Positions 1,962 through 3,447 of a stretch of DNA of 13,019 nucleotides are shown here, in pieces. Below the pieces are notes generated by a model. That model did no database searches, had not been told where the DNA came from, and was given only the letters and a program-made list of their open reading frames with translations. Each line of letters opens with the position of its first letter. Position 1 is the stretch's first letter. The position numbers were made by a program, and so were the translations under genes. Source of the DNA: Candidatus Altarchaeum sp. (lineage in GTDB: Archaea; Altiarchaeota; Altiarchaeia; Altiarchaeales; Altiarchaeaceae); assembly GCA_018260755.1 (NCBI GenBank), contig JAGTWP010000009.1, positions 1 through 13,019 of the forward strand, read 5' to 3'.

Positions 1962-2861
1962 ATGGAAGAATTACTTGCTCCGGGAACAAGAACATGTGCC
2001 GGATGTGGGGCAGCAATTGCTATAAGGATGGTTTTAAGAGCAATACAAAAAGAGGTGAGTAAAAATTTTATTGTCTGCAATGCGACTGGCTGTTTAGAAG
2101 TGGCAACTACACCTTATCCCGAAACATCATGGAGAATTCCCTGGATACATGTTGCATTTGAAAATGCCTCTGCTGTTGCAAGCGGAGTAAATGCAGCATA
2201 TATGTATATAAGCGAAAACAACAAAACAGAGAAACCTAAAATAATTGCTATTGGTGGTGACGGTTCAACATTTGATATTGGTTTTGGCTCACTTTCCGGA
2301 ATGTTAGAAAGAAATGACGATGTGCTTTACATTTGCTACGATAACGAAGCGTACATGAATACTGGAGTTCAGCAGTCAGGTGCAACTCCAAAATTTGCCA
2401 GTACAACTACAACCCCGTCAGGAAAGGTTATTCCGGGAAATTTACAGAGAAAGAAAAATTTAGTTGAAATAGCAGCAGCACACGGTGTTTATGCAGCATC
2501 AACAACAGTTTATAATTTCAGGGATCTGGAAAACAAGGTAAGAAAAGCACTAAAAATAAAAGGAGCAAAATACATACAAATTTTTGCCCCATGCCCGACA
2601 GGCTGGAGAATACCTGAAAAAGATGCAATTAAAATTACAAAATTAGCAATTGAGACCGGAATATGCAAGGTTTTTGAAATAGAGAATGGAAAATTTAATT
2701 TAAATTATAAACCCGCAAAGCGAAAAAAGGTTGAGGAATATTTAAAGGTGCAGGGAAGGTTTAGGCATTTAACCCAACAACAAATAGATGAAATTCAGGA
2801 TAGGATTGACAAAGAATGGCAAGAGTTGGAAAAGGTGAATGTATCGGCAGTCACGGTATAA
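1962..2861 (+). CDS. porB: Pyruvate:ferredoxin oxidoreductase, beta subunit (PorB)
   Basis: PorB is the thiamine-diphosphate subunit of the archaeal multi-subunit pyruvate synthase. The complex interconverts pyruvate plus CoA with acetyl-CoA plus CO2 using ferredoxin, and in autotrophs it runs toward pyruvate. The 299-residue length matches the family. CAGC at residues 12-15, Cys44 in NATGC and Cys211 in FAPCPTGW are the four expected ligands of the TPP-proximal [4Fe-4S] cluster. GDG at 99-101 and NEAYMNTG at 128-135 form the TPP/Mg motif. The start follows an A/T leader without a Shine-Dalgarno site. No alpha, gamma or delta subunit gene lies in the window, so the gene is split from the usual por cluster or follows an unusual order. 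Part of its 3' end is duplicated downstream. A 2-oxoacid oxidoreductase of other specificity is possible but less likely. Confidence 0.93.
   Translation: MEELLAPGTRTCAGCGAAIAIRMVLRAIQKEVSKNFIVCNATGCLEVATTPYPETSWRIPWIHVAFENASAVASGVNAAYMYISENNKTEKPKIIAIGGDGSTFDIGFGSLSGMLERNDDVLYICYDNEAYMNTGVQQSGATPKFASTTTTPSGKVIPGNLQRKKNLVEIAAAHGVYAASTTVYNFRDLENKVRKALKIKGAKYIQIFAPCPTGWRIPEKDAIKITKLAIETGICKVFEIENGKFNLNYKPAKRKKVEEYLKVQGRFRHLTQQQIDEIQDRIDKEWQELEKVNVSAVTV
2811..2854 (+). repeat. porB 3'-end segment, copy 1 of a 44-bp duplication
   Basis: These last codons of porB (KEWQELEKVNVSAVT) recur at 2948-2991 with 38 of 44 bases identical. All six differences are transitions. The two copies are 137 bp apart. 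Confidence 0.85.
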
Positions 2862-2863
2862 AC

Positions 2864-2884
2864 TTCTCTTTTAGAAAAAGAGAA
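2864..2884 (+). terminator. Hairpin just after the porB stop
   Basis: A perfect 9-bp stem pairs TTCTCTTTT (2864-2872) with AAAAGAGAA (2876-2884) around a 3-nt loop, two bases after the stop. A weaker CTCT/AGAG repeat follows. No T-run follows the stem, so it may stabilise the 3' end or separate porB from the J-domain gene rather than terminate transcription. Confidence 0.4.
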
Positions 2885-2947
2885 AACTCTCTGAAAAGAG
2901 AAAAAAGTAAACATTGAAAGAAATTTAGGGGGCCCAAATAAATACTT

Positions 2948-2991
2948 AAAGAATGGCAAAAATTAGAAAAGATGGATGTATTGGCAGTCAC
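2948..2991 (+). repeat. Copy 2 of the porB-tail duplication, holding the J-protein start
   Basis: The segment matches 2811-2854 at 38 of 44 positions. In the porB frame it would read [15 protein letters not shown], still PorB-like. The J-domain gene instead starts at the ATG inside GAATGG and reads a different frame. The match stops exactly where J-domain homology begins. Confidence 0.85.
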
Positions 2992-3447
2992 TATCTGGTG
3001 CTGGGCCTAAAGAGAAGTGCTTCTGAACGGGAAATAAAAGACAGATACAGGGAACTTGCAAAAATTTATCATCCCGATGTTAATCATTCTTATGATGCGG
3101 AAGAAAAATTTAAGCAGATAAATGAAGCGTATAATTACTTAATTTCTCATGTCGGAGATAAATCTGATAGTTATAATGCTGATAGTTATAATGCTGATAG
3201 TGATGATGCTGATAGTGATGATGAGGAAATTTTTAGGGTAAGAAAAACAAATAAAGCAAATAAAACAAACAAAAAAGACATCAAAGACATCACAGATGAA
3301 ATTTTAAAAGATATTTCAAAATCCGTAAAGAGAGATGTCCATAAAAATTTACAAAAAAATTTACAAAAATTTATGAAACAGAGAAATCGCGTAATTTACA
3401 CAGCAGCAGTTAAAAGTATAAAGAAAGAAATGAAAAGAAGATTTTGA
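2953..3447 (+). CDS. Small J-domain (DnaJ-like) co-chaperone
   Basis: The 164-residue protein carries an N-terminal J domain at about residues 13-66: HYLVLGL, then [11 protein letters not shown], the Hsp70-activating HPD triad at 40-42, and [12 protein letters not shown]. It should recruit and stimulate an Hsp70-type chaperone. It lacks the Gly/Phe region, the Cys-rich zinc fingers and the C-terminal substrate-binding domains of true DnaJ. An acidic linker of four five-residue units (DSYNA twice, then DSDDA and DSDDE) follows, then a Lys-rich tail with [10 protein letters not shown] and KNLQKNLQK repeats. ATG 2953 is the only usable upstream start, because the next candidate, GTG at 2998, would cut into the J domain. 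No Shine-Dalgarno site is near, and a GGGGGCCC run lies 18 nt upstream. Residues 1-13 come from the porB-tail duplicate. It converges on asd with a 26-nt gap. Partner and substrate are unknown. Confidence 0.85.
3166..3225 (+). repeat. Four tandem 15-bp repeats inside the J-protein gene
   Basis: Units start at 3166, 3181, 3196 and 3211. The first two are identical (GATAGTTATAATGCT). The last two read GATAGTGATGATGCT and GATAGTGATGATGAG. They encode [15 protein letters not shown] and DSDDE. The paired pattern suggests two successive slippage events. Confidence 0.9.

What the first reader, a model, noticed from the sequence alone, without database searches (positions are those of the whole stretch)
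2811..2991. porB tail duplicated out of frame to give a J-domain protein its start codon and first 13 residues
2948-2991 matches 2811-2854 at 38 of 44 bases. All six differences are transitions, and the copies lie 137 bp apart. In copy 1 the DNA encodes the PorB C-terminus. In copy 2 the ATG hidden in GAATGG is read in another frame and opens the J-protein gene. The match ends at codon 13, just where J-domain homology begins. This looks like a gene that gained a new 5' end by local duplication of its neighbour's 3' end.
Basis: partly seen in the sequence, partly recalled or inferred. Interest (0 to 1): 0.62.

Follow-up and report, generated by a model that had tools for sequence, protein, structure and literature searches.

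The report
Mobile hairpin separates two overlapping genes
The repeat is real, but the J-protein gene did not gain a new start: in close relatives the two genes share this DNA, and here a small jumping hairpin, one of dozens in these archaea, landed in the overlap and copied 44 bases of its target, giving each gene its own copy.

Summary
Observation confirmed: 2811-2854 and 2948-2991 match at 38/44, all six differences being transitions. Three congeners (Ca. Altiarchaeum group) have one copy, in which the porB 3' end and the J-protein 5' end OVERLAP out of frame; the J N-terminus already exists there. The window genome instead carries a 137-bp insertion: a 93-bp filler plus the 44-bp duplicate. 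The filler holds a ~58-bp hairpin element ("E") dispersed in three of the four genus genomes (about 37, 10 and 7 copies). Of the 37 best-scoring copies, 32 lie between long direct repeats of LOCAL sequence (about 22-120 bp), against 2% of control pairs. At 16 other loci, congeners without E have a single T and no hairpin. The repeats usually begin 0-8 nt before a start codon, and the element points the same way as the gene (23:0). So E is a mobile element with long, variable target duplications anchored at gene starts, which spares both neighbours. Its three arms co-vary as an intramolecular triplex would require. No Y1 transposase was found; reverse transcriptase is absent from three of four genomes. 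The transposition mechanism is unknown. I found no description of such elements in the papers searched.

The parts
1962..2861 (+). porB (TPP-binding beta subunit of a 2-oxoacid:ferredoxin oxidoreductase); its last residue and TAA stop (2855-2861) come from the inserted DNA
   Evidence: ORF; PF02775 2.2e-22; congener PorB ends ..SAVTI* versus ..SAVTV* here
2811..2854 (+). T1: first copy of the 44-bp target, read as PorB C-terminus
   Evidence: 1/44 differences from congener G001
2855..2947 (+). 93-bp inserted DNA between the two target copies; absent at this junction in three congeners
2860..2915 (+). Element E, dispersed hairpin repeat (model R1 match, 68.8 bits, 8.4e-13)
2864..2872 (+). arm A of E (pyrimidine, TTCTCTTTT)
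2876..2884 (+). arm B of E (purine, pairs with A)
2893..2907 (+). arm C of E (purine; mirror image of B across copies), followed by GTAAAC
2916..2947 (+). A/T-rich tail of the insertion up to T2; variable in length between copies
2948..2991 (+). T2: second copy of the 44-bp target; starts 5 nt before the J-protein ATG
2953..3447 (+). J-domain protein gene (164 aa)
   Evidence: ORF; PF00226 4.3e-18; congener orthologues 74-80% identical

Best explanation
SHOWN: by comparison with three congeners, the ancestor had porB and the J gene overlapping by about 44 nt. In the window lineage a short hairpin element (E) with its A/T-rich tail was inserted, and the 44 bp of target, from 5 nt before the J start codon to codon 13, was duplicated on both sides. 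porB keeps the first copy and takes a stop codon from the insert; the J gene keeps the second copy, so neither gene is broken. E is a dispersed family in this genus, with related hairpins elsewhere in its class, and it nearly always sits between long direct repeats of local sequence that begin at or just before a gene start. INFERRED: E is a non-autonomous mobile element whose insertion is tied to the direction of transcription, with staggered breaks spanning the first ~25-120 nt of a transcription unit (for example an R-loop) filled in around the inserted hairpin. The broad class (mobile hairpin with long target duplication) I hold at about 0.85; the transcription-coupled staggered-break mechanism at about 0.4.
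For: Single-copy overlap in three congeners. E is dispersed: G003 37 matches, G001 10, G000 7, G002 1 weak. 32 of the 37 best-scoring E copies have flanking direct repeats scoring >50, against 1.9% of 1,294 mismatched up/downstream pairs, and several of those control pairs are orthologous sites or array neighbours. Congeners lacking E have a single T and no E-like filler at 16 further T-E-T loci, including a perfect 84/84 duplication in G003 whose orthologue in G000 is contiguous. Start codon 0-8 nt inside T2 in 14 of 25 loci (expected 19%, p=4e-5). E points the same way as the restored gene in 23 of 23 assignable loci, 0 opposite. Three-way arm covariation (mirror fit 97.5 against shuffled mean 14.8, 0 of 2000; 20 mirror-better, 2 direct-better). 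T-E-T also at tRNA genes, and in other families of the class.
Against: No mobilising enzyme identified: Y1_Tnp absent in all four genomes, RVT_1 in one only; these MAGs are 65-87% complete. Target duplications of this length and variability are not typical of the prokaryotic transposases I know. All genomes of the genus are draft MAGs, and three loci have N gaps beside a T copy (L002, L004/L176, L108). Some E copies lack recognisable T (5 of the 37 best). One-directional orientation could reflect selection for function rather than mechanism. Some T repeats begin far from the start codon or lie at a gene 3' end (L107).
Confidence: 0.85

Rival explanations
1. One reading: a free-standing local duplication of the porB tail created a new 5' end for a J gene that earlier started elsewhere.
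For: The direct repeat exists and copy 2 holds the J start.
Against: Three congeners lack the duplicate yet encode the same J N-terminus in the overlap; the spacer is a dispersed element found in the same arrangement elsewhere.
Confidence: 0.05
2. RNA-mediated or circle-mediated integration: a molecule made of a gene's 5' transcript fragment (T) joined to E recombined back at the homologous gene start, giving T-E-T (Campbell-type or target-primed).
For: T begins at or near start codons or tRNA 5' ends, as the 5' end of a leaderless transcript would; constant 5' end and variable A/T-rich tail of E; the 23:0 strand bias fits.
Against: No reverse transcriptase in G000, G002 or G003; one tRNA case has T as the tRNA 3' half on the opposite strand (L103).
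Confidence: 0.25
3. E is chiefly a functional regulatory element (terminator plus promoter, or attenuator) kept by selection at gene starts; the duplications are tolerated by-products.
For: Fixed orientation relative to the gene; a pyrimidine tract that could end transcription of T1 and an A/T-rich tail that could carry a TATA box (direct reading).
Against: Spacing between E and the start codon is very variable, congeners without E keep the gene, and T1 decays. Presence/absence between close relatives looks like mobility.
Confidence: 0.25
4. Assembly artefact of short-read MAGs around repeats.
For: N gaps next to T copies in three loci.
Against: T1 and T2 differ by substitutions in many loci (80-98% identity), including the window; the pattern recurs in separate MAGs and, more weakly, in a single-contig genome (G012).
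Confidence: 0.04

Closest known systems
REP/REPIN elements with RAYT (Y1) transposases
   Same: Short hairpin repeats, dozens of copies, intergenic
   Different: No Y1 transposase in any of the four genomes; long flanking target duplications, which from general knowledge REP elements do not make
Mobile GC clusters of yeast mitochondria (PMC4478555)
   Same: Tiny palindromic mobile elements with presence/absence polymorphism and no gene
   Different: [quoted passage not shown] here about 22-120 bp starting at genes
MITEs
   Same: Non-autonomous short dispersed elements with flanking duplications
   Different: No terminal inverted repeats at the element ends seen; duplications long and variable in length
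SINE/LINE-type retroelements (target-primed reverse transcription)
   Same: Variable-length target duplications, constant 5' end, A/T-rich variable 3' tail
   Different: No reverse transcriptase found in three of four genomes; duplications anchored at gene starts
Insertion at the Caldiarchaeum tRNA-Thr locus; archaeal integrase att sites (PMC3293823)
   Same: A 5' gene fragment, then an element, then the complete gene; SSV1 integration leaves a 44-bp tRNA repeat
   Different: There a 1.9-kb element with a putative recombinase at one tRNA; here a ~58-bp hairpin with a different duplicated sequence at each locus, mostly protein genes

Membership tests
REP/RAYT system | Y1 (RAYT/TnpA) transposase in the genome | tested here: not met
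   PF01797: 0 of 4 genus genomes, while five control genomes give matches; MAGs incomplete
REP/RAYT system | Short palindromic hairpin, many copies | tested here: met
MITE | Terminal inverted repeats | tested here: not met
   Hairpin A/B is internal; no inverted repeat joins the two ends of the insertion in the copies read
MITE | Short target duplication of fixed length | tested here: not met
   T about 22-120 bp, variable
Non-LTR retroelement (SINE-like) | Variable-length target duplications | tested here: met
Non-LTR retroelement (SINE-like) | Reverse transcriptase available | tested here: not met
   RVT_1 only in G001; none in G003, which has most copies; MAG incompleteness leaves doubt
Integrase att-site insertion | Same att sequence duplicated at every integration | tested here: not met
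   T is locus-specific
Known Rfam RNA family | Match above gathering score | tested here: not met
   No significant Rfam match in 2700-3100
Mobile element | Filled and empty orthologous sites | tested here: met
   17 loci including the window

The most novel reading that the evidence does not exclude
A class-wide family of tiny mobile DNA hairpins in Altiarchaeota, with co-varying three-arm (triplex-like) architecture, that inserts only in the direction of transcription at gene and tRNA starts by an undescribed process which duplicates the first ~25-120 nt of the target gene and so regenerates it.
Probability: 0.4. Interest if true: 0.85.

Novelty: new variant of a known kind. Interest (0 to 1): 0.66.

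Why it matters
It shows how overlapping genes can be pulled apart in one step without breaking either, because the target duplication hands each gene its own copy of the shared DNA. More broadly, the element family looks like a mobile repeat that preserves host genes by regenerating their starts, with target duplications far longer than those of ordinary prokaryotic transposons and strict alignment with transcription. Related hairpins also lie inside tRNA genes and a 23S rRNA gene in other Altiarchaeia, which may bear on where archaeal introns and tRNA fragments come from. The mirror covariation of the third arm is a testable sign of an intramolecular DNA triplex.

Tried and rejected
Free-standing duplication creating the J start: rejected, congeners have the overlap. 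E as a C-terminal peptide tag on T1: T1-E frames are open at some loci but in different frames, and closed at others, so rejected. A arm pairing with C arm in Watson-Crick fashion: G positions fit the mirror (20) not the direct (2) alignment of C to B. Known RNA family: none. E on viral contigs: no exact match to one degenerate pattern, weak evidence only. RVT_1 and Y1_Tnp searches found no obvious mobilising enzyme. A fixed-distance promoter carried by E: spacing to the start codon varies too much; not resolved. Literature searches for Altiarchaeota repeats or tRNA introns, and for long target duplications in archaea, gave nothing that describes this. Some control pairs score high because they are orthologous sites or members of one array.

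Full report
CHECK. The repeat is exactly as described: 2811-2854 and 2948-2991, 38 of 44 identical, start-to-start 137, all six differences transitions by direct reading. PorB (1962-2861) ends in copy 1; a 164-aa J-domain protein starts at 2953 in copy 2 in another frame; the DnaJ Pfam match starts at residue 13. The window is contig C42 of a 1.3-Mb, 85%-complete archaeal MAG. G003 is a third, unnamed congener.

RELATIVES. All three congeners have the porB-J junction with a single copy of the 44 bp. There porB and the J gene overlap out of frame: PorB ends ...KEWQELEKVNVSAVTI* while the same DNA starts MARVGKGECISSHYLMLGL (G001); G002 and G003 are alike. So the J N-terminus predates the duplication. 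In the window, copy 1 differs from G001 at 1/44 and copy 2 at 7/44, against 12/150 in the J gene body; copy 1 is still PorB coding sequence, and copy 2, freed from PorB, changed faster. A caveat on the J start: G001 and G003 also have a Met at codon 16 overlapping the PorB stop (TGATG), but G002 has ACG and the window GTG there, whereas the upstream ATG is present in all four (in the congeners the PorB frame also constrains it).

THE INSERT. Between the copies lie 93 bp with no counterpart in congeners. Their core (about 2860-2915) is a dispersed repeat: a covariance model built from 13 copies finds about 37 matches in G003, 10 in G001, 7 in the window genome and one weak match in G002. The element reads G(A/C)AC, arm A (pyrimidine), a short loop, arm B (purine, complement of A), a connector such as CACTCCG partly complementary to the leading tetranucleotide, arm C (purine), GTAAAC, then an A/T-rich tail. 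Arm sequences differ among copies but change together: C fits the mirror image of B far better than shuffled pairings do (97.5 against mean 14.8, 0 of 2000) and better than a direct copy of B in 20 of 25 non-symmetric copies (2 the other way). That is the pattern expected if C lies as a third strand along the A:B hairpin; this structure is inferred, not shown.

TARGET DUPLICATION. The T1-E-T2 layout is general. Of the 37 best-scoring copies, 32 have a direct repeat of local sequence on both sides with alignment score above 50, against 1.9% of mismatched upstream/downstream pairs, several of which are themselves orthologous sites or array neighbours. T is about 22-120 bp and 80-100% identical; T1 usually ends 0-7 bp before the element and T2 starts soon after it. 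For 16 further T-E-T loci I fetched orthologous sites from congeners that do not carry E at that gene: all have one T and nothing resembling E; in most of them the upstream flank is also continuous with T. The youngest case is an 84/84 duplication in G003, empty and contiguous in the window genome. With the window locus that makes 17 filled/empty comparisons.

WHERE IT LANDS. T2 usually carries a gene start: shikimate dehydrogenase-like, mannose-1-phosphate guanylyltransferase-like and other well-formed ORFs (names from reading the sequences), tRNA-Leu twice in G003 with one shared in G001, and a tRNA-Ala (its 3' half, opposite strand). The start codon lies 0-8 nt inside T in 14 of 25 loci (expected 19%, p=4e-5). 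In 23 of 23 loci where a clear ORF could be assigned, element and gene point the same way. The window obeys the rule: T starts 5 nt before the J ATG, which independently supports 2953 as the real J start. One case (L107) has T at a gene 3' end.

WIDER. In other families of the class, weaker but architecturally equal hairpins occur. Some again sit between repeats of tRNA starts, for example an array before tRNA-Lys in G026. Others lie inside tRNA genes near the anticodon loop, or inside a 23S rRNA gene. These identifications rest on my reading of the sequences, except where ARAGORN confirmed the intact tRNA.

MECHANISM. Mobility with long target duplication is well supported. How it moves is not known. 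No Y1 transposase in four genomes; RVT_1 only in G001; the MAGs are incomplete. I favour transcription-coupled insertion with widely staggered breaks (about 0.4); integration of a T-E RNA, cDNA or circle, and selection for a regulatory role, are the main alternatives. In every model the duplication spares the host: in the window porB takes a stop codon from the insert (last residue I to V) and the J gene keeps a full start.

KNOWN WORK. Searches of open papers found no description of these elements. The nearest parallels are yeast mitochondrial GC clusters with short direct-repeat flanks (PMC4478555) and an element at a Caldiarchaeum tRNA-Thr locus flanked by a 5' tRNA fragment and a complete tRNA gene (PMC3293823). 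The features fail the defining tests of MITE, REP/RAYT and att-site insertion, and meet only part of those for retroelements.

VERDICT. Observation confirmed; the gain-of-start reading is wrong in direction; the real finding is a mobile-element family whose long, gene-start target duplications can separate overlapping genes.

Noticed in passing
L094 160-2175 (G001, Altiarchaeales archaeon A3); L050 (G002): PorB of G001 is interrupted in frame at CYDNEAYMN|TGVQQSG by an intein-like insertion (CLTEDAL...VVHN); G002 has a shorter interruption at the same place; the window genome and G003 have none.
   Followed up: partly
window 3157-3223: The J gene carries a 15-nt tandem repeat expansion (about 4 units, Ser/Tyr/Asn/Ala/Asp-rich) absent from the three congeners.
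   Followed up: no
L152, L161, L165 (tRNA genes), L160 (23S rRNA gene): Related hairpins sit inside tRNA genes near the anticodon loop and inside a 23S rRNA gene in other families of the class; ARAGORN finds no tRNA in L152, L161 or L165.
   Followed up: partly
L174 (G026:C185:1500-3700): Tandem array of several [tRNA-Lys 5' part + hairpin] units with ~132-135 bp period before one intact tRNA-Lys gene.
   Followed up: partly
L168 (G003:C87), L143 (G001:C40), L147 (G001:C98), L108 (G003:C88): Some E copies carry extra sequence in the apical loop (e.g. GAGCACATAGCACCCTTAGCACACAGC) or longer inserts, suggesting nested or variant elements.
   Followed up: no
G003:C87/G000:C62, G003:C111/G001:C4, G003:C79/G001:C16, G003:C17/G001:C1: Several insertions appear at the same gene start in two species: either shared ancestral insertions or hot spots.
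   Followed up: no
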